This document shows positions 58 through 20,670 of a DNA stretch of 26,044 nt, piece by piece (within the stretch, counting starts at the first letter, position 1; each line of letters starts with the position of its first letter). The translations under genes and the position numbers were made by a program. Source of the stretch: a virus; IMG/VR virus record IMGVR_UViG_3300037993_000022, positions 1 through 26,044 of that record, one strand, 5' to 3'. The notes beneath the pieces were generated by a model. It worked only from the letters and a program-made list of their open reading frames with translations. It was not told the origin of the DNA and searched no databases.

Positions 58-549
58 ATGTCAGTTAATGCGTCACAATTACGACCGGCTGACCAGGAAG
101 AGGGGGCGGCTCCGGCGTCCGAGGGTAGTGATGCTCAAATGACCATCACGTCGGGCTTTGCGAAGTGGCTCCTGTACAAGCTGATCTTGCTGAAGGACAT
201 GGTTGACATGCTGGAGCCTCGATCGACGGCTGCTGCTCAAGAGGTTATCCGGGAGAAATACTTCACCGGTTCCAGCTCGATCGAGAAAATAGCGGTCAAA
301 AAGGCGGCAGTGAGCAGGGTAATCTGCCTGGTCGAGCGGGCGATCGCCAACATGTCGCCTGAGCAGCGCCAGGTCTACAGGCTGCGTTTCAGGTCCAGGT
401 ACAGCTATAAGGACATCATGCAGCGGGCGGCAGTGTCAGAAAGCACCCTGACAAGGCGTCTGGAGGAGATCGTCGACCTCGTGATCGTTTACGTGGGCAT
501 GGCCGATGAGGACGACATGAAGGAATTCAACCGATTTTTTGAGGACTAA
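58..549 (+). CDS. ArpU/sigma-70 region 4-like phage late transcription regulator
   Basis: 163 aa. The C-terminal half (about residues 95-145) has the look of a sigma region 4/ArpU-RinA type helix-turn-helix: a segment beginning MSPEQRQVYRLRF, then YSYKDIMQRAAVSESTLTRR as the recognition helix. Proteins of this type sit just before the packaging genes of Gram-positive phages and activate the late operon, which is exactly the position here. The N-terminal ~40 residues are low in structure and acidic. The ATG at 58 is preceded by AAGGGGAAG at good spacing. Downstream there is no gene for 400 bases but there are direct repeats and an extended -10 promoter, a plausible target. The family call rests on HTH pattern and context; the exact binding site is inference. 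Confidence 0.72.
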   Translation: MSVNASQLRPADQEEGAAPASEGSDAQMTITSGFAKWLLYKLILLKDMVDMLEPRSTAAAQEVIREKYFTGSSSIEKIAVKKAAVSRVICLVERAIANMSPEQRQVYRLRFRSRYSYKDIMQRAAVSESTLTRRLEEIVDLVIVYVGMADEDDMKEFNRFFED

Positions 550-566
550 ATTTCCAGGATCAACGT

Positions 567-666
567 GAAGGAAAATTGACGGAAACGAGATCCCTGCGAT
601 GCCCGGCATGGCTGGGTGAGCGGGGACGGCCTGAAAGAGCAGATTGAAGGAAAATTGAAGGAAACG
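567..666 (+). repeat. Direct repeats upstream of the intergenic promoter (candidate operator)
   Basis: Bases 567-587 and 646-666 are the same 21-mer with one mismatch (core GAAGGAAAATTGA, then C or A, then GGAAACG). The second copy contains two perfect tandem 11-mers, ATTGAAGGAAA at 643-653 and 654-664. They end about 27 bases before the -10 box at 694-699, where an activator often binds. That they are sites for the regulator encoded at 58-549 is inference. Confidence 0.5.
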
Positions 667-690
667 GCTGGGGGAGCGATGAAGGAAGTG

Positions 691-699
691 TGCTATAAT
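691..699 (+). promoter_or_regulatory. Extended -10 promoter
   Basis: TGCTATAAT is a perfect extended -10 (TGn plus TATAAT). No good -35 hexamer is seen 16-18 bases upstream (the bases there are GGGGAG), as expected for an extended -10 or activator-dependent promoter. The predicted start is near 706, so the transcript would enter the CRISPR-like repeat at 733 after about 27 bases. It could also serve the late operon. Confidence 0.55.
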
Positions 700-732
700 C
701 CGCGCCAGGTACAGTTTTCGGAAGATGCTGGT

Positions 733-764
733 GTCGCCCCTAACACAGGGGCGTGGATTGAAAT
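733..764 (+). CRISPR. Solitary type I-C-like CRISPR repeat (single 32-base unit, no array)
   Basis: The unit is 32 bases, the usual type I-C repeat length. It opens with GTCGCCCC, forms a 6-bp stem (CGCCCC 735-740 with GGGGCG 748-753, 7-base loop) and ends in TGGATTGAAAT. This ending is the conserved type I-C 3' end, which becomes the 5' handle of the crRNA after Cas5d cleavage. Translated, it gives the familiar spurious peptides of such arrays (VAPNTGAWIEI forward, FNPRPCVRGD reverse). There is no second complete repeat, no spacer of normal length and no cas gene in the window. A 9-base direct repeat AAGATGCTG flanks it (722-730, 767-775). Confidence 0.85.
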
Positions 765-892
765 AAAAGATGCTGCTCAGGCAGTATCTCACCCATTGGC
801 GGCGGTCGGTGCCAACCTGACCGTCGCTCCCCTACGAAGGCAGCGGGCAGGACGCTGTTGGGCATGCGCACCTCCCTTCATGAACGGGCAGG

Positions 893-926: not shown

Positions 927-978
927 TTTGCGCGTGTTCGGCTGCTTTAGGTGAATGACGAAAAGGGGGACGAACCGG

Positions 979-1167
979 GTGAATACAAGCGGTATGTCAC
1001 GGTACGAACTGGAGACACTGGTGAACCGGCTTGAGGAAAAGTTAGAACAAGAAAAGGCGGCGCTATCCCGGCTTCAGCAATCCTGCGCGCTCTGCCGGCA
1101 GAATGATGCCGAGGTAAGGGCGGAACTGGAGGCGCAGTTGCAGTCGTTGCGGGGCGGTGTCCAATGA
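979..1167 (+). CDS. Small coiled-coil protein, unknown function
   Basis: 62 aa if the GTG at 979 is used; AAAAGGGGG at 961-969 stands 9 bases upstream. The frame is also open from an ATG at 955, but that has only a weak site. The sequence is nearly one long charged helix (ELETLVNRLEEKLEQEKAAL) predicted to form a coiled coil, with a CALC pair in the middle. The stop overlaps the next start as ATGA. Function not recognised. The position at the head of the packaging operon suggests a small accessory protein. Confidence 0.6.
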   Translation: MNTSGMSRYELETLVNRLEEKLEQEKAALSRLQQSCALCRQNDAEVRAELEAQLQSLRGGVQ

Positions 1168-1355
1168 GTGGCAAGGGAGGGCTGATCGCAATCAGGGGCA
1201 CTGCTGGCGGTATTATCACGACGATCGACGTCGCCCGCAGCAAGGGCAAGGTCGTGCTGAAAATCGGGCATACTTACCGTTTTGGCGAGAATGTGGCAAT
1301 GACGCCTGAACAAGTGTCAGAACTGGTAGAGAAACTGAAGAAAGCGCTGCAGTGA
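1164..1355 (+). CDS. Small hypothetical protein
   Basis: 63 aa, ATG overlapping the previous stop by four bases (ATGA), so probably translationally coupled. The N-terminal half is glycine- and beta-rich (GGIITTIDVARSKGKVVLKI) and the end is a helix (MTPEQVSELVEKLKKAL). No family recognised. The next gene begins with GTGA overlapping this stop, so the three small frames are tightly packed and likely real. Confidence 0.6.
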   Translation: MSGKGGLIAIRGTAGGIITTIDVARSKGKVVLKIGHTYRFGENVAMTPEQVSELVEKLKKALQ

Positions 1356-2410
1356 AGGGGGCGACGCCGGTGGCCGAGGCTCTGCATATTTTTGACGCTC
1401 TTCCAAACTACCACGGAGACAAGCGATCGCAGGCCAGGATGGCGCGGTCGATTATGAGCCTGGTGCCGCCTGCGAATCTGGCGCCCGCTTTTGCGGACGT
1501 GTGGCACCGCAGCCAGGCCGTGGCGCTTATGGCGAAGGCGCACGGATACCGCGTCGAGGCGAACGCCGTGGGCGATCTGGCCTATATCTCAGGCCAGGCG
1601 CTGATCGCCAACAATAAGCGGACGCTTGGCCGGCATGACGTCGCCTCGCTGGTGATGGACCTGCCGGAGACGAGTAGCAAACGCGGCTTCATCGAGCGGG
1701 AGCACGCCGATCTCTTCCTGCGCAGGCACGCTCAGTACCTGGACGCTGCTGTCGAGAAAGTGCAGGGTATGGAGAACGGAGCAATGCGCCAGGCGATGCT
1801 GCTGCATCTGCTCTTCAAGCTGGTGGCGGCGCTGCAGCCGTTTAAGGTTAGCGCCGTAAATGTGAGCATTCCGGTCGAGGATAAGCGGGTCGAGCAGGTC
1901 AAGACCAAGCAATTGCCGACTGCAAAAGTGGTGCTGCGGTCGCTCACTGACACGCTGGGCGAACTGGCCGAGCAGGTCAACCGGGGCATAATCGACAACG
2001 CCAGGAAGAACGTGGTTGACATGCGGCCAGACCTGGACTTCCTGGAGCAGGTCAAGGTGGATACGGCCTACTTCGATGTGCCGGCGCTGGTGGCTGAGAC
2101 GGCAGAGGAGCACCTGCTGCTGGAGATCATCCGGGGCGAGCGTACACCGGGGAGGGACAGGCTCCACAAGGACAAGCTGCGGATACGGCTGGAGAATGCG
2201 CTTCAGGCCGCAGAGCATATCCAGACCTGGATCTTGAAGCTGGGGCCGGTAGAGGCGAGCGAACTGCAGGAGTACGCCCAGCTTGTGGCAGCCAGACGGC
2301 GGGAGCCTTTCAGCTACCGCGTGCTGTCCAGTATGGCGATCTGCAAGGATTCGCTTCCGGATGAGCGCAAGCTCGAAGGTGTGCTGATTTTGGGGAGGGC
2401 GCGGTGGTGA
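1352..2410 (+). CDS. Hypothetical phage protein, mostly helical, 352 aa
   Basis: GTG start overlapping the previous stop. The protein looks largely alpha-helical with many charged residues and no signal peptide or membrane segment. No catalytic motif is evident and I do not recognise the family. It is the largest unknown gene in the early part of the window, between the regulator and the ParB/terminase genes, where other phages carry regulatory or DNA-handling genes. Its coding quality is good: a long frame with the same base composition as the structural genes and overlaps at both ends. A role in packaging or late DNA metabolism is a guess from position only. Confidence 0.7.
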   Translation: MKGATPVAEALHIFDALPNYHGDKRSQARMARSIMSLVPPANLAPAFADVWHRSQAVALMAKAHGYRVEANAVGDLAYISGQALIANNKRTLGRHDVASLVMDLPETSSKRGFIEREHADLFLRRHAQYLDAAVEKVQGMENGAMRQAMLLHLLFKLVAALQPFKVSAVNVSIPVEDKRVEQVKTKQLPTAKVVLRSLTDTLGELAEQVNRGIIDNARKNVVDMRPDLDFLEQVKVDTAYFDVPALVAETAEEHLLLEIIRGERTPGRDRLHKDKLRIRLENALQAAEHIQTWILKLGPVEASELQEYAQLVAARRREPFSYRVLSSMAICKDSLPDERKLEGVLILGRARW

Positions 2411-2709: not shown

Positions 2710-3099
2710 ATGTCTTTCGAGGTTTATGTGCCACAGGCAACCAAGCAAGGCGGACATGGCGCAGGCCAGGCTGCTCAGGCTGTCGCTGCTCAGCCGACGC
2801 CCGCACGACAGCGAAGACGCAGCATGCCGATGGCTGTCCGGCAGGGACTTCCGCTGATCAAGCAGTCGCTGATCATCGAGCCGCTGCCCTATCCGTGGCC
2901 GTACAGGTTGTGCCTGGCAGCGAGGATGCCAGCGGATCAGTGCTGGTTGTCACGCTGGCACAACTCGGTCTACAAATCGCCGACCGGCACGCTCATATTT
3001 GAGGAGGACGATTATGGGGGTTTTGAAATCTGCCCGCAAACAGGCGCTGCGGGCGGCCAGGCAGGCAGGGATCAGAAGCTGGCTGCGGGGAACTGGTAA
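2710..3099 (+). CDS. Hypothetical protein, 129 aa
   Basis: Well-placed ribosome site AAGGAGG (2694-2700) 9 bases before ATG. The first 45 residues are rich in Gln, Ala and Gly and look disordered. The middle (LIIEPLPYPWPYRLC, then SPTGTLIFEEDDYGGFE) looks like a small folded beta domain. The last 30 codons overlap the next gene in another frame and read as low-complexity, so the true gene may have been longer or have lost its end. No family recognised. Confidence 0.5.
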   Translation: MSFEVYVPQATKQGGHGAGQAAQAVAAQPTPARQRRRSMPMAVRQGLPLIKQSLIIEPLPYPWPYRLCLAARMPADQCWLSRWHNSVYKSPTGTLIFEEDDYGGFEICPQTGAAGGQAGRDQKLAAGNW

Positions 3100-4524: not shown

Positions 4525-5002
4525 CATAGATGTGATCAAGCGGCGGGAGAAGATCCTGCGGGCGTATTACGTGCATCGTTGGTCAGCCAGGCAGATCGCC
4601 GAAGTGCTCAGCATTCCGGAAGGGACGGTCGAGAATGACCTGCGGGCAATTAGGGCATACGGCCAAAAGATTGGCGATCAGGCGATGCAGGTGCCGCTGG
4701 AGAATACGATCTTTGAACTGCAGACGGCCTACAACGAGCGACAGTCGCTGCGTTGGCAGCAGTTTCACAACGAAACGGACATCTGGGATAGGAAAGATCC
4801 AGTCAACCCTAAACTTATTCACAAGGCCGACAACCGCCTGCGGGCGCAGCTTTTAAACAACATCGCCGAGGAAGAGCGGGAATTCATCAAAGTAATGCAG
4901 ACGCTCGGCGGTGTCCACAAGGAGCCGGACAAGCTGCAAGTTGAGGAGAGCTGGGCGGACATTGCAGGTGATGTGCCGGATGAAGAAGAGACTGAAACAT
5001 GA
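4490..5002 (+). CDS. Terminase small subunit (terS-like)
   Basis: 170 aa from the ATG at 4490, 9 bases after AAAGGG (4475-4480); it overlaps the ParB-like gene by 35 bases. Residues 31-54 form a sigma-region-4-like helix-turn-helix (WSARQIAEVLSIPEGTVEND), the DNA-recognition part of small terminases. A long helical oligomerisation part follows, ending in an acidic tail. It lies directly upstream of, and overlaps, the large terminase, the standard arrangement. It should bind the pac or cos site and load the motor. The call rests on HTH, size and position, not on a specific signature. Confidence 0.7.
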   Translation: MARQKKFRLGPNIDVIKRREKILRAYYVHRWSARQIAEVLSIPEGTVENDLRAIRAYGQKIGDQAMQVPLENTIFELQTAYNERQSLRWQQFHNETDIWDRKDPVNPKLIHKADNRLRAQLLNNIAEEEREFIKVMQTLGGVHKEPDKLQVEESWADIAGDVPDEEETET

Positions 5003-6458
5003 GGAAAAGGTCAAGCTAGTCCAGCGCATGCGGAAGAATCCGGTGTGGTTCTGGCGGCAGACATTCAAGGGCAAGCCGTGGAGCAAGCAGCTGGAGATTC
5101 TGAATTCAGTCTGGAAGAACAAGATCACGGCAGCCAGGAGCTGCCACGGCGCGGGGAAGAGCTGGACGGCTGCCAGGGTCGGGATCACTTACCTGATGGC
5201 ATGGCCGTCGATCGTGGTCACGACAGCGCCCACCGGTCGCCAGGTCCGCATGATCCTCTGGCAGGAGTGGGCGCTCGCCGTAAACAAGGCAAAGAAGCCG
5301 CTGGGCGGCAGACTGCTCACGGTCGAGCACAAGATCGCCGATGGCTGGTATGCCTTCGGCTTTGCCACGGACGTGCCGGACAACTTTCAGGGACTGCACG
5401 GCAAGCGCATTTTGGTGATCGTGGACGAGGCGGCCGGGATCGAGCCAAAGATCTTCGCAGCGATCGAGTCTCTGCTCACGTCGGAGAATGCGAGGCTGCT
5501 GTGCATCGGGAACCCTACCGATCCGGACTCGAACTTTGCGAAGCTTTTCAGCGATCCGAAAGTCGGCAAGATCCACATAAGCGCTTTCGACACGCCCAAC
5601 TTTACGACATTCGGGATCACTGAGGCCGACTTCGAGACGAATACCTGGGAAGAGAGGATCACTGGCCCGCTGCCATATCCGGAGCTGGTGACGCCGGCCT
5701 GGGCATATGACAAATACGTGAAGTGGGGGCCAGACTCACCGGACTACATCGCCAGGGTCAAGGGTCAATTCCCCGAAGCTGGCGAGAACGTGCTCATTCC
5801 GCTGACATGGGTCGAGCTGGCTATGCAGCGCTGGGCCGACATGGCTGAGGGTGAGCCGCGGGAAATGGGCGTCGATGTCGCCCGTTTTGGCATGGACGAA
5901 TCAGCGCTCGCACCACGGGCTGGCCGGAAGGTCATATCGATTCAGGGTTGGCACAAGCATGACCTCATGGAAACGGCAGGCTGGGTCAAGACCGAGGCCG
6001 TGCAGCTCAAGATGGCGCAGGTCAAGGTGGACGTCATCGGAATGGGCGCAGGTGTGGTCGACCGACTTAATGAGCAGCGGCGCACACGCCCGGGGCTGCC
6101 GTTTGCCGTCGAGGGGATCGACGTCTCAAAGGCTCCGAAGAATCAGGAACGCTTTTTCGATCTGACATCCGAACTGTGGTGGAACATCCGGGACATGCTC
6201 GATCCAAATCCGGCGAGCAATCCGACACCGATCGGCCTGCCTCCTGACGAGGATCTGCTCGGGCAACTGACGAGCAGGCGCTACACGTACACGAGCACCG
6301 GCAAGGTGAGGCTGGAGAGCAAAGACGATATAAAGAAGCGGGGGCTGTCATCACCGGACAGGGCTGACGCCGTGGTGCTGGCTTTTGCTCAGCCGCTGAA
6401 GTTCCCGAGCGTGATCGGCATCTCGCTCGAAGGCACGAGCAAATTTAAGGGACGGTGA
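4980..6458 (+). CDS. terL: Terminase large subunit (packaging ATPase and nuclease)
   Basis: 492 aa from the ATG at 4980, 9 bases after AGGTG. This motor pumps phage DNA into the prohead and cuts it. A Walker A loop SCHGAGKS spans residues 54-61 and Walker B ILVIVDEAAG has D149 and E150. The C-terminal RNase H-like nuclease shows the acidic set D299 (MGVDVARFG), D351 (VDVIGMGAG) and D463 (SSPDRADAVV). Length and motif order are normal. The stop overlaps the portal start (GTGA), so the two are coupled. Function is confident; packaging type (headful or cohesive) cannot be read from the sequence. Confidence 0.95.
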   Translation: MKKRLKHEEKVKLVQRMRKNPVWFWRQTFKGKPWSKQLEILNSVWKNKITAARSCHGAGKSWTAARVGITYLMAWPSIVVTTAPTGRQVRMILWQEWALAVNKAKKPLGGRLLTVEHKIADGWYAFGFATDVPDNFQGLHGKRILVIVDEAAGIEPKIFAAIESLLTSENARLLCIGNPTDPDSNFAKLFSDPKVGKIHISAFDTPNFTTFGITEADFETNTWEERITGPLPYPELVTPAWAYDKYVKWGPDSPDYIARVKGQFPEAGENVLIPLTWVELAMQRWADMAEGEPREMGVDVARFGMDESALAPRAGRKVISIQGWHKHDLMETAGWVKTEAVQLKMAQVKVDVIGMGAGVVDRLNEQRRTRPGLPFAVEGIDVSKAPKNQERFFDLTSELWWNIRDMLDPNPASNPTPIGLPPDEDLLGQLTSRRYTYTSTGKVRLESKDDIKKRGLSSPDRADAVVLAFAQPLKFPSVIGISLEGTSKFKGR

Positions 6459-9136
6459 TCACTTTGGCCGACGAACTAAATAAAGGCACCGGGAACGAAT
6501 ACAATGCCGTGATCGGTGGGTCAGGTGACAAATACGGTCCGCCTCCTGGTGGCTATCGAGGCGCAATTCCAGGATCAGGCGATCTCAGCCTGCAGCCAGG
6601 CGAGCAGCTGCCGCGAAAGTTCAATCCGATGCAGGAGTTCGGTCTTACCGGCCTGCCGCGCTTTGGCGGTTTTGTATATGAGGAATGGCTGCAGGACCTG
6701 GTGGGCATTCGAGGCCGCAACATATACCGGGAGATGCGGGACAACGATCCGATCATCGGAGCGATCCTGTTTACGATCGAGATGCTCTGCAGGCAGGTCA
6801 GCTGGTCGGTCAAGGCCGGAGGTGACTCGCCTGCAGACCAGGAAGCAGCGGATTTCCTGAATTCTTGCATGCACGATATGAGCACCAGCTGGCACGACTT
6901 CATTACTGAGGCCTTATCAATGTTCGTTTTTGGGTGGTCGTGGCACGAGATCTGTTACAAGAAGCGGCTGGGCGGCGCTGACTACGCCGATCCGCTGACT
7001 CGCTCGAAGTACGACGACGGCAGGATCGGCTGGCGCAAGCTGCCGATCAGGGCGCAGGAGACGCTCTGGCGCTGGACGTTTGACAATGAGGGCGGCATCA
7101 AGATCATGAATCAGTTGCCGCCGCCTGACTTCATTCCGAGGCGCCTGCCGATCGAGAAGGCACTGCTATTCCGGACGAAGAGCTACAAGAACAATCCAGA
7201 GGGGCGCCCTATTCGTGTTGACACGCCCGTCTTGACTCCGCATGGATGGACAACGATGGGCGAGATAAAGGTCGGCGATCGCGTTTATGACGAGCAGGGG
7301 CACATTCGGAATGTTGTTGGGAAATCGGAAGTGTTCACTGATCGGCCTGTTTACGAAGTCGTATTCAGCACCGATCACGTGATATATGCTGATGTCTGCC
7401 ACGAATGGTCAGTGACAACACGCAATGACAGGTTCAACAAGAAGAAACCTCGGAAGCTCACGACGGAGCAGATGTATAAACTATTGGCCGAGGGAAAGCC
7501 TCGGCATTTCTCGTGTGGGCAAGCGCCCATATTGGAAGCAGAAAGGGTCGATTTGCCTATTGACCCTTATATCATGGGGTACTGGCTCGGAAATGGTATA
7601 ACGAGCAAGGGCGCATTCTCTGTTTCAAAAGAGGACTGTGCTTTTATTTGCTCACAATTTGAAGCCGCAGGCTACCGATGCAATTATGACGGCAACACCA
7701 CAGTGAGCACTACTGGCTTGCTCACGGATTTAAAAGACTTGGGTGTTCTCGGCAATAAGTATGTGCCGGATGAGTATATGAGGGCACACCCTGAGCAGCG
7801 GCTTGCGTTGCTTCAAGGGCTGATGGACTCTGATGGTCATTCGCCTGGGGATAAGAAAGACAAGGCAAGCGAATTTGCCAACACCAACATGCTATTGATC
7901 AGATCCGTTTCTGAACTGGTGCGTAGTTTGGGAGGACAACCAAGATTCAGGGTCATGGAAGAGGCCGGAAGTCTTGGGGGCACAATTAAGGGAAGGCGTA
8001 TCATGTCCAAGAACGATGTCTATGAAATTACGTTCATGCTGGACATACCTGTTCATCGCCTGCCCCGCAAACTAAAAGCGCAGACGCTTAGCAGATCGAG
8101 CAGAACCAGCGGCCACTTCATTAGGGCGATTCGACGAGTAGACAACGCGGACACTGTTTGCATTGAGGTCGATAGCCCTAATCACCTGTTTCTCGCTGGG
8201 GAAGGTATGGTGCCAACTCATAATTCTTGTCTGCGCACGGCTTACAGGGCGTGGTATTTTAAGAAGCACATCGAGGAGATCGAGGCGATTGGCGTCGAGC
8301 GTGACCTGGCCGGGCTGCCGGTCGCGCTGGTGCCCCCGGAGATTCTTGACGTAAATGCTTCAGACGCTGAGAAGGCGGTCCTGACCTACGTCAAGAATCT
8401 GGTCATGAGCCTGAGACGTGACGAGCTGGAGGGCGTCGTCTTTCCGGCAGAGCTGACATCGGCAGGGACGCCCTCAGGCTATAAACTGTCGCTGCTGTCG
8501 GCGGGCGGCTCCGGCAGGCGTCAGTTTGACACGAACGCGATCATCATGCGCTATAACCAGCAGATCGCCTGTACGGTCATGGCGGACTTCATCCTGCTGG
8601 GACAAGGAAAGGTCGGATCATTTGCGCTGCACAGCGACAAGACGGAACTGTTCGCCCAGGCGCTGGCTGCGTGGCTGGATGCGGTCTCTGAGGTTATCAA
8701 CCGCCACGGCGTGCCGCGGCTCTTTGCGCTTAACACATTTCCGGGGATCACGAAACTCCCGGAAGTGGAGCATGGTCAAGTAAAGGAGTACGACTTGGTG
8801 GACCTGGCTGCTTATATCACGGCGCTGTCGGGTGCCGGCATGATGCTTTTCCCTGACGATGAGCTGGAGAACCAGCTGCGGCGTGCTGCGAATTTGGTCG
8901 AGAAACAAAAGGACTCCGACGAGACGGCGGCGCAGAATCTCCAGGAAGACCAGGGCCGCGGCGGTCAAGGGCCGGCGAAGCAGCCGGGCGACGGCACGAC
9001 TCCGGAAGACCAGGATGAATCGGCGACGCCTCCGGTGCAGAAGCGCGTGATCCCGGTTACCCAGGACGTGGCCGTCGAACTTATGGGCCTCATGAAGGAA
9101 TTTCAGGATCTGGTCAAGAGGATGAGGGTGGCTTAG
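6455..9136 (+). CDS. Portal protein precursor containing an intein
   Basis: 893 aa as translated. Residues 252-590 are an intein, leaving a 554-residue portal after splicing. The exteins match Mu gp29/DUF935-like portals: an N-terminal part with IREMRDNDPIIGAILFTIE-type sequence (about 90-120), then NNPEGR just before the intein and SCLRTAYRAWYFKKHIEEIE just after, which together form the conserved portal segment. The portal is a dodecameric ring at one head vertex, serving DNA entry, terminase docking and tail joining. The C-terminus is Gln/Glu/Gly-rich, as in many portals, and may be flexible. The GTG start at 6455 overlaps the terminase stop. Splicing is required to make a working virion. 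Confidence 0.9.
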   Translation: MITLADELNKGTGNEYNAVIGGSGDKYGPPPGGYRGAIPGSGDLSLQPGEQLPRKFNPMQEFGLTGLPRFGGFVYEEWLQDLVGIRGRNIYREMRDNDPIIGAILFTIEMLCRQVSWSVKAGGDSPADQEAADFLNSCMHDMSTSWHDFITEALSMFVFGWSWHEICYKKRLGGADYADPLTRSKYDDGRIGWRKLPIRAQETLWRWTFDNEGGIKIMNQLPPPDFIPRRLPIEKALLFRTKSYKNNPEGRPIRVDTPVLTPHGWTTMGEIKVGDRVYDEQGHIRNVVGKSEVFTDRPVYEVVFSTDHVIYADVCHEWSVTTRNDRFNKKKPRKLTTEQMYKLLAEGKPRHFSCGQAPILEAERVDLPIDPYIMGYWLGNGITSKGAFSVSKEDCAFICSQFEAAGYRCNYDGNTTVSTTGLLTDLKDLGVLGNKYVPDEYMRAHPEQRLALLQGLMDSDGHSPGDKKDKASEFANTNMLLIRSVSELVRSLGGQPRFRVMEEAGSLGGTIKGRRIMSKNDVYEITFMLDIPVHRLPRKLKAQTLSRSSRTSGHFIRAIRRVDNADTVCIEVDSPNHLFLAGEGMVPTHNSCLRTAYRAWYFKKHIEEIEAIGVERDLAGLPVALVPPEILDVNASDAEKAVLTYVKNLVMSLRRDELEGVVFPAELTSAGTPSGYKLSLLSAGGSGRRQFDTNAIIMRYNQQIACTVMADFILLGQGKVGSFALHSDKTELFAQALAAWLDAVSEVINRHGVPRLFALNTFPGITKLPEVEHGQVKEYDLVDLAAYITALSGAGMMLFPDDELENQLRRAANLVEKQKDSDETAAQNLQEDQGRGGQGPAKQPGDGTTPEDQDESATPPVQKRVIPVTQDVAVELMGLMKEFQDLVKRMRVA
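7208..8224 (+). mobile_element. Class 3 intein with LAGLIDADG homing endonuclease, in the portal gene
   Basis: 339 residues (precursor 252-590). Block A reads PIRVDTPVLTPHGW, with Pro where Cys or Ser normally sits. The class 3 signature W-C-T is complete: Trp318 in CHEWSV (block B), Cys569 in TVCIEV (block F position 4) and Thr588 in PTHN (block G). The C-terminus is His589-Asn590, followed by Ser591 as +1 residue. A dodecapeptide endonuclease is nested inside: YIMGYWLGNG (372-381) and LLQGLMDSDG (ending 461). The first motif has Asn380 where the metal-binding Asp/Glu is usual; the second keeps Asp460. The insert is visibly more AT-rich than the flanks, as expected for a recently arrived element. 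Confidence 0.9.
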
Positions 9137-20199: not shown

Positions 20200-20643
20200 T
20201 TGCCACTCGACGAAAGTAGGGTCATAATGGGCACCTTTGGCCAGGTGTTCATAAATGGTATTTGGCAGACAAACTTCAACAAGCTCACCGCCGAGGTCGA
20301 GCAGACCAAGAAAGAGCTGCTCCTTTCAGGTGATCTCTGGACGCGCCACAAGAAAGGGGCGTTGAAGGGCACCGGGACGCTCTCGGGCTTCAAGGTCACG
20401 TCCGACATGATCGCAGGCGGCTTCAATAAGCTGGAGCTGCTTAGCACGCTGTCAGATCCTGAGTCCTATGGCTATGAGACGATCAGGATTCAGAATGTGC
20501 TGTGGGATAAGCTGCAGCTTGCCAACTGGGAAGCTGGCACAGAAATTGCTGAGTCGATGCCGTTCACGTTTAGCAATTACGAACTTCTGGACCCGATTAT
20601 CGGGCCGGATTCGCCACCGAGTTCAGGAATTACAAGCTTCTAG
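20200..20643 (+). CDS. xkdM: Tail tube protein (XkdM-like)
   Basis: 147 aa, TTG 8 bases after AAGGGGG (20185-20191). Matches the PBSX XkdM tube family: GTFGQVFINGIWQTNFNKLT near the start, KKELLLSGDLWTRHKKG, and a LSGFKVTSDMI beta motif. It forms the inner tube through which DNA passes. The family usually ends near the segment FSNYELLDPI. Here the C-terminus has 13 extra residues from a segment that is repeated exactly after the stop, suggesting a recent small duplication. Confidence 0.9.
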   Translation: MPLDESRVIMGTFGQVFINGIWQTNFNKLTAEVEQTKKELLLSGDLWTRHKKGALKGTGTLSGFKVTSDMIAGGFNKLELLSTLSDPESYGYETIRIQNVLWDKLQLANWEAGTEIAESMPFTFSNYELLDPIIGPDSPPSSGITSF

Positions 20644-20670
20644 GACCCGATTATCGGGCCGGATTCGCCA
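20589..20670 (+). repeat. Perfect 28-bp direct repeat spanning the end of the tube gene
   Basis: Bases 20589-20616 and 20643-20670 are identical, 54 bases (18 codons) apart and in the same frame. Each copy holds a palindrome CCGAT-T-ATCGG. The first copy encodes the last part of the tube protein (DPIIGPDSP); the second starts at the last base of the TAG stop. Duplicated end of gene, or a paired RNA hairpin before the chaperone start. Confidence 0.92.

What the first reader, a model, noticed from the sequence alone, without database searches (positions are those of the whole stretch)
733..764. Solitary type I-C CRISPR repeat in a phage: candidate RNA anti-CRISPR (Racr)
One complete 32-base type I-C-like repeat, with intact stem CGCCCC/GGGGCG and 3' handle TGGATTGAAAT, stands alone between a late regulator and the packaging operon. 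There is no array, no cas gene and no spacer of normal length. It points in the same direction as a predicted promoter 34 bases upstream, so the RNA would expose the repeat hairpin. Solitary repeat units in phages that act as decoy crRNAs are established. For Cas5d-processed type I-C, such an RNA could occupy Cas5d and Cas7 and stop interference. The role is inference; the repeat itself is seen directly.
Basis: partly seen in the sequence, partly recalled or inferred. Interest (0 to 1): 0.92.

Follow-up and report, generated by a model that had tools for sequence, protein, structure and literature searches.

The report
Lone CRISPR repeat in phage leader
A phage fragment carries one complete type I-C CRISPR repeat, letter for letter the repeat of a real bacterial CRISPR array, inserted in the leader of its late genes; it is probably a decoy RNA against CRISPR immunity, a trick already shown for other phages.

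Summary
Positions 733-764 are one intact 32-nt type I-C repeat, the only copy in the 26,044-base virus record and far beyond chance. It is identical, 32/32 including the terminal T, to the three repeats of a CRISPR array in a Tissierellia MAG that also has cas5d. A scan of 84,980 species genomes found no other genome with its 28-nt core.

The repeat lies in the 5' leader of the late operon: after a sigma-like regulator, two activator-like direct repeats and an extended -10 promoter, and before conserved hairpins and the packaging genes. The closest relative (L002/L003; regulator 80% identical) has the same promoter and leader without the repeat. A 9-nt duplication flanks the repeat, so it was probably gained as an insertion.

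Best explanation: an RNA anti-CRISPR (Racr) candidate of type I-C, with the late leader RNA exposing the hairpin to Cas5d. Type I-C Racrs are already established (RacrIC1, PMC10651486), so this is a new member of a known kind, untested. New here are the array-identical repeat, the empty site and the late-leader position. Against it: a late promoter is poor timing for a decoy, the host is unknown, and the matching array lies in AT-rich DNA while the phage is 58% GC.

The parts
733..764 (+). Solitary type I-C CRISPR repeat, GTCGCCCCTAACACAGGGGCGTGGATTGAAAT (stem 735-741/747-753, loop 742-746, 11-nt handle 754-764)
   Evidence: identical 32/32 to the three repeats of L012; stem probability about 0.99
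722..730 (+). Left copy of flanking duplication AAGATGCTG
   Evidence: a 9-nt shared word across a 32-nt gap occurs at 8 of about 8,650 sampled positions of the window
767..775 (+). Right copy of flanking duplication AAGATGCTG (also 5' arm of leader hairpin 1)
   Evidence: sequence
689..699 (+). Extended -10 promoter TGTGCTATAAT (no -35 box); start expected near 706
   Evidence: Sequence; identical in L002. The start site is inferred
567..588 (+). Activator-like site 1: GAAGGAAA-ATT-GACGGAAACGA (tandem 8-mers 11 nt apart)
   Evidence: Sequence; conserved in L002. Role inferred
646..667 (+). Activator-like site 2: GAAGGAAA-ATT-GAAGGAAACGG, just upstream of the -35 region
   Evidence: Sequence; degenerate in L002. 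Role inferred
58..549 (+). Sigma-70 region 4-like late transcription regulator (163 aa)
   Evidence: Pfam Sigma70_r4_2 E 1.7e-5 (just under its cut-off); PHROG transcriptional regulator 3.1e-9
769..788 (+). Leader hairpin 1 GATGCTGC-TCAG-GCAGTATC, starting 4 nt after the repeat; L002 has a hairpin here too
798..828 (+). Leader hairpin 2 GGCGGTCGG..CTGACCGTCGC, conserved in L002
888..931 (+). Leader hairpin 3 GCAGGCAGGCCGGAGAG..CTCTTCCGGCCTGTTTGC, conserved in L002; no clear U-tract after it
4911..6458 (+). Terminase large subunit of the downstream late operon
   Evidence: PHROG 2, E 1.6e-43

Best explanation
The element is a type I-C RNA anti-CRISPR (Racr) candidate carried in the 5' leader of the phage's late transcript. 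A copy of a host-type I-C repeat was inserted into an existing, structured late leader. RNA polymerase starts near 706 and the RNA exposes the repeat hairpin. The host's Cas5d would bind and cut at the stem base (after 753). That leaves a 5' product of about 48 nt ending in the hairpin, and a 3' product starting with the 11-nt handle UGGAUUGAAAU and continuing into the leader. Neither product carries a spacer followed by a second repeat, so Cas5d (and perhaps Cas7) would be tied up in dead-end complexes, lowering type I-C interference. Shown: the repeat, its identity to a real array, its absence from the same leader in a relative, the leader context and the in silico hairpin. Inferred: transcription, Cas5d binding and cutting, sequestration, and benefit to the phage.
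For: One complete repeat with no array. Identical over all 32 nt to a three-repeat array in a Tissierellia MAG that has cas5d next to a cas3-like ORF; a genome of the same class carries 56 copies of a relative, GTCGCCCCTCACGCAGGGGCGTGGATTGAAAT where listed. Same strand as the promoter 34 nt upstream and all late genes. Present here but absent from the otherwise conserved leader of L002, so it is not needed for leader function. Hairpin and handle remain largely accessible in the leader. Overlapping ORFs look non-coding: 616-954 has a stop in L002, and 436-792 matches only in broken pieces, partly antisense of the regulator. Precedent: RacrIC1 (PMC10651486). In type I-C, Cas5d cuts the repeat, leaves an 11-nt handle and stays on the 3' hairpin (PMC5965380).
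Against: No expression data. The promoter has activator-like sites and no -35, as expected of late transcription, whereas a decoy should act early. No host is known: the only genome with the exact repeat lacks a relative of this phage's terminase, and its array lies in AT-rich DNA, while the phage is 58% GC. No known acr gene is adjacent. Only one relative of the leader was found.
Confidence: 0.6

Rival explanations
1. Neutral or recent capture: a stray repeat from a host array was copied into the leader by illegitimate recombination and has no selected function.
For: Absent from the one close relative; exact identity to an array repeat suggests youth; a 9-nt duplication flanks it; leader variation is tolerated in this region.
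Against: Landing complete, in sense orientation and 34 nt after a promoter is what selection for an RNA would give. Solitary I-C repeats recur in viral contigs, with 24 of the 36 scorable intergenic ones followed by a gene on the same strand, though no null model was run for that count.
Confidence: 0.22
2. Cas5d-responsive control of the late operon: in hosts with type I-C, Cas5d cuts the late leader at 753 and changes the stability or read-through of the late mRNA, making late expression sense the CRISPR system.
For: The repeat sits in the leader of the late transcript, 4 nt before a hairpin, rather than in a separate small-RNA gene. Several viral contigs have identical solitary repeats at dispersed sites, some just upstream of genes.
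Against: The relative without the repeat has the same leader; I know of no such mechanism; control by the host's defence seems costly to the phage.
Confidence: 0.09
3. Mini-array or guide: the repeat plus downstream sequence makes a crRNA aimed at a competitor or the host.
For: The repeat is complete and identical to an array repeat; viral mini-arrays are known (PMC11656645).
Against: No second repeat, whole or partial, in the flank. The sequence that follows is the phage's own leader, largely present in L002 without the repeat, so nothing was acquired as a spacer.
Confidence: 0.04
4. DNA role: the repeat is a recombination or integration site that lets the phage enter host CRISPR arrays.
For: Proposed earlier for solitary repeats (quoted in PMC10651486); the repeat is identical to an array.
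Against: It lies inside the late leader, where integration would split the late operon from its promoter. The window is a fragment without a lysogeny module in view, so integrase content is unknown.
Confidence: 0.04
5. Assembly artefact: a chimeric join at a CRISPR repeat.
For: The record is a metagenomic fragment.
Against: Both sides of the repeat align continuously to one leader in L002/L003; a join at a repeat would bring in foreign sequence on one side.
Confidence: 0.01

Closest known systems
RacrIC1 (Bifidobacterium pseudocatenulatum prophage, PMC10651486)
   Same: Solitary type I-C repeat in a phage genome, transcribed from a phage promoter; shown to inhibit a type I-C system.
   Different: RacrIC1 lies 11 nt downstream of an acrIC5 homologue in one bicistronic RNA. 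Here the repeat is in the leader of a late (packaging) operon with no recognised acr, and activity is untested.
RacrIF1 (Thiocystis violascens prophage, PMC10651486)
   Same: Repeat-mimic RNA after its own promoter in an intergenic region.
   Different: Type I-F, cut by Cas6f, whose upstream product carries Cas6f and a Cas7f filament. Type I-C has no Cas6; Cas5d cuts, and the 5' product here would be only about 48 nt.
Type I-C CRISPR array of Tissierellia bacterium MAG S7A_St_15 (L012, JAUNVD010000011.1)
   Same: Repeat identical over all 32 nt.
   Different: A real array (3 repeats, 2 spacers of 34-35 nt) in a genome with cas5d; neither spacer matches the phage (best 19/35 and 20/34).
Viral CRISPR mini-arrays (reviewed in PMC11656645)
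   Same: Repeat identical to one of a cellular array, in a virus without cas genes.
   Different: Those have repeat-spacer units with spacers against related viruses; here there is one repeat and no acquired spacer.

Membership tests
Solitary repeat unit (SRU, criteria of SRUFinder in PMC10651486) | At least 90% identity and 90% coverage to a known CRISPR repeat | tested here: met
   100% over 32 nt to the L012 array
Solitary repeat unit (SRU, criteria of SRUFinder in PMC10651486) | Intergenic | tested here: met
   Between the regulator (ends 549) and the first late ORF (955 or later). Overlapping ORFs 616-954 and 436-792 are not conserved as intact frames in L002. Prodigal itself was not run
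Solitary repeat unit (SRU, criteria of SRUFinder in PMC10651486) | No full or partial second repeat within 100 bp | tested here: met
   Flank scores within background; single match. My scoring differs from SRUFinder's
RNA anti-CRISPR (Racr), type I-C | Promoter on the same strand within 250 nt upstream | tested here: met
   Extended -10 at 689-699, conserved in L002. No -35, so the standard scan finds none
RNA anti-CRISPR (Racr), type I-C | Repeat hairpin folds as in the cognate CRISPR repeat | tested here: met
   Stem probability about 0.99 for all but the closing pairs, in five contexts
RNA anti-CRISPR (Racr), type I-C | Host carries a matching type I-C system | tested here: inconclusive
   A genome with the identical repeat and cas5d exists, but it is not shown to be the host. 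Of nine genomes with related terminases, one has cas5d and it has no matching repeat
RNA anti-CRISPR (Racr), type I-C | Transcribed as RNA | not testable with these tools
   No RNA data
RNA anti-CRISPR (Racr), type I-C | Inhibits type I-C interference by binding Cas proteins | not testable with these tools
   Needs an interference assay
RNA anti-CRISPR (Racr), type I-C | Neighbouring acr gene (common, not required) | tested here: not met
   No named family of known function for the small ORFs 955-1167, 1164-1355, 2404-2598 and 2710-3099 (2404-2598 scanned with NCBIfam only). An unknown acr cannot be excluded
Viral CRISPR mini-array | At least two repeats enclosing a spacer | tested here: not met
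   the downstream sequence belongs to the conserved leader

The most novel reading that the evidence does not exclude
A CRISPR repeat has been built into the leader of a phage late mRNA, so that every late transcript is both a decoy for Cas5d and a Cas5d-cleavable switch: late expression and CRISPR suppression would be coupled in one RNA. Dispersed identical solitary repeats upstream of genes in other viral contigs would be further cases.
Probability: 0.1. Interest if true: 0.7.

Novelty: new member of a known kind. Interest (0 to 1): 0.36.

Why it matters
It adds a well-defined type I-C Racr candidate with two things that are useful together: an identical array in a sequenced genome with cas5d, and an 'empty-site' relative in which the same leader lacks the repeat. 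That makes a clean natural with/without pair for testing. If active from a late promoter, it would raise the question of why a phage should suppress CRISPR late, for instance to protect replicated genomes or to block primed adaptation.

Tried and rejected
1. Exact repeat in viral contigs: none. In INPHARED phages: none; in plasmids, only matches up to 90%.
2. Known structured RNA for the leader: nothing in Rfam other than the sub-threshold CRISPR-DR9 hit.
3. More relatives of the leader: the leader-hairpin pattern found only the known relative. A promoter pattern was written with 8 instead of 7 free positions, so its zero is worthless.
4. A first broad repeat pattern was one base too long and was replaced.
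5. Host: terminase relatives at 53%, 50% and 45% identity occur in genomes of the same phylum as the Tissierellia MAG, two of them on GC-rich contigs, 61% and 67%. None of the three regions shares the regulator, leader or repeat, so the host is perhaps in that phylum but is unresolved.
6. Spacers of the identical array do not match the window or its relatives.
7. Second degenerate repeat at 823 (GTCGCTCCCCTACGAAGG): within background, and present in L002 without the repeat, so rejected.
8. Intrinsic terminator after hairpin 3: not found by the scan, so a short terminated small RNA is not claimed.

Full report
What was checked. The window is an IMG/VR virus record of 26,044 bases, probably a fragment. 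Position 733-764 reads GTCGCCCCTAACACAGGGGCGTGGATTGAAAT, exactly as reported. A general type I-C repeat pattern with up to three mismatches matches once, against 0.00 expected in shuffles. No second repeat or partial repeat lies in the 100-nt flanks. Rfam's only hit in the region is CRISPR-DR9, below threshold.

The repeat is a real array repeat. Scanning 84,980 species genomes for the 28-nt core gave one genome, a Tissierellia MAG, with three copies spaced 66-67 nt apart. All three are identical to the window over 32 nt, including the terminal T that differs from the usual C. That genome encodes a Cas5d well above the NCBIfam cut-off (E 1.3e-68), next to a cas3-like ORF (named from its sequence, not scanned). 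Genomes of the same class carry related repeats that also end in T, one of them 56 times. So the window's repeat is a natural I-C substrate, not merely a look-alike.

Where it sits. Upstream is a 163-aa protein with a sigma-70 region 4. Then come two sites of the form GAAGGAAA-ATT-GANGGAAA (567-588, 646-667), then TGTGCTATAAT (689-699) with no -35 box. This is the look of an activator-dependent late promoter (inference). Downstream are three strong hairpins, then small ORFs, a decayed methyltransferase homologue, ParB-like protein, terminase, portal, head and contractile-tail genes. These genes lie on the + strand, as does the repeat.

It was probably inserted. One close relative of this leader was found: L002/L003, an IMG/VR contig with 80% identity in the regulator and 86% in the terminase. 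Its promoter, two of the three hairpins and the ribosome-binding region are nearly the same, and a hairpin of different sequence stands where hairpin 1 is, but it has no CRISPR repeat at all. In the window the repeat is flanked by AAGATGCTG on both sides, a duplication that about 1 in 1,000 positions would show. The simplest reading is gain of the repeat in the window's lineage; loss in L002 is formally possible with only two sequences. The sequence after the repeat is conserved leader, which argues against an acquired spacer and so against a mini-array.

Mechanism. In the folded leader the repeat stem forms with probability near 1 and most of the handle is open. Published work shows that Cas5d cuts type I-C repeats, leaves an 11-nt 5' handle and stays with the 3' hairpin, with a second Cas5d proposed on the handle (PMC5965380). 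Applied here, cleavage after 753 would give a 5' product of about 48 nt ending in the hairpin and a 3' product beginning UGGAUUGAAAU. Both could occupy Cas5d, and the 3' product might collect Cas7. This is the Racr idea, and a type I-C Racr has been proven in another prophage (PMC10651486). I therefore rate Racr at 0.6, with every step from transcription onward inferred. In RacrIF1 the active product is the one upstream of the cut; whether that holds for type I-C is not known from the passages read.

Weak points. A late promoter is a strange place for a decoy that should act early; RacrIF1 and RacrIC1 were transcribed from their own promoters on plasmids without the phage. The phage is 58% GC, the identical array lies in AT-rich DNA, and that genome has no relative of this terminase. 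Terminase relatives at up to 53% identity occur in other genomes of the same phylum, two of them on GC-rich contigs, but none has a matching array. The identical repeat could have spread with a I-C system to an unsampled host.

How common it is. The broad I-C pattern finds 106 stretches in IMG/VR. A crude filter leaves about 50 solitary copies (at least one of them, L144:1026, is really a mini-array). With crude gene calls, 37 are intergenic; of the 36 with a called downstream gene, that gene is on the same strand in 24, in 22 of them within 200 nt. No null model was run, and phage genes are mostly co-oriented anyway, so this is only a hint. The published survey reports 2,103 viral solitary repeats; I could not check whether this contig is among them.

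Verdict. Observation confirmed; interpretation plausible and strengthened, but unproven; kind already known.

Noticed in passing
window ~7210-8226, inside portal gene 6455-9136: In-frame insertion of about 1.02 kb with a LAGLIDADG_3 domain, ending VPTHN/S: an intein, absent from the portals of L003, L024 and L025. Its first residue seems to be proline (PIRVDTPV), which recalls class 3 inteins (from memory, not tested).
   Followed up: partly
window 1352-2410: Open 352-aa homologue of a Dam-like DNA methyltransferase that has lost both expected motifs: YHGDK where L003 has YLGGK, and YFDVPAL where L003 has YFDPPYA. A dead methyltransferase with an intact frame; L003 has two intact ones.
   Followed up: partly
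L107 6125, L110 358 and 955 (one contig); L119 and L167 (one contig); L144 1026 and 1604: Several viral contigs carry two or three identical type I-C repeats at dispersed sites, often just upstream of genes. Two of them share 22 nt upstream (GGTGATATCTTCARTATCTGCG), and L144:1026 is followed about 33 nt later by a repeat without its handle.
   Followed up: partly
window 955-1355 versus L003 1438-1960: The small ORFs just after the late leader differ between the two relatives while both sides are conserved; a possible slot for exchangeable small genes.
   Followed up: no
L002 1-290: Tandem 18-nt repeats (ATCAAGGCTGGCACGGGC-like, coding IKAGTG-like hexapeptides if in that frame) upstream of the regulator in the relative.
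   Followed up: no
window 20589-20616 and 20643-20670: Perfect 28-nt direct repeat GGACCCGATTATCGGGCCGGATTCGCCA, starts 54 nt apart, within ORFs of the tail region.
   Followed up: no
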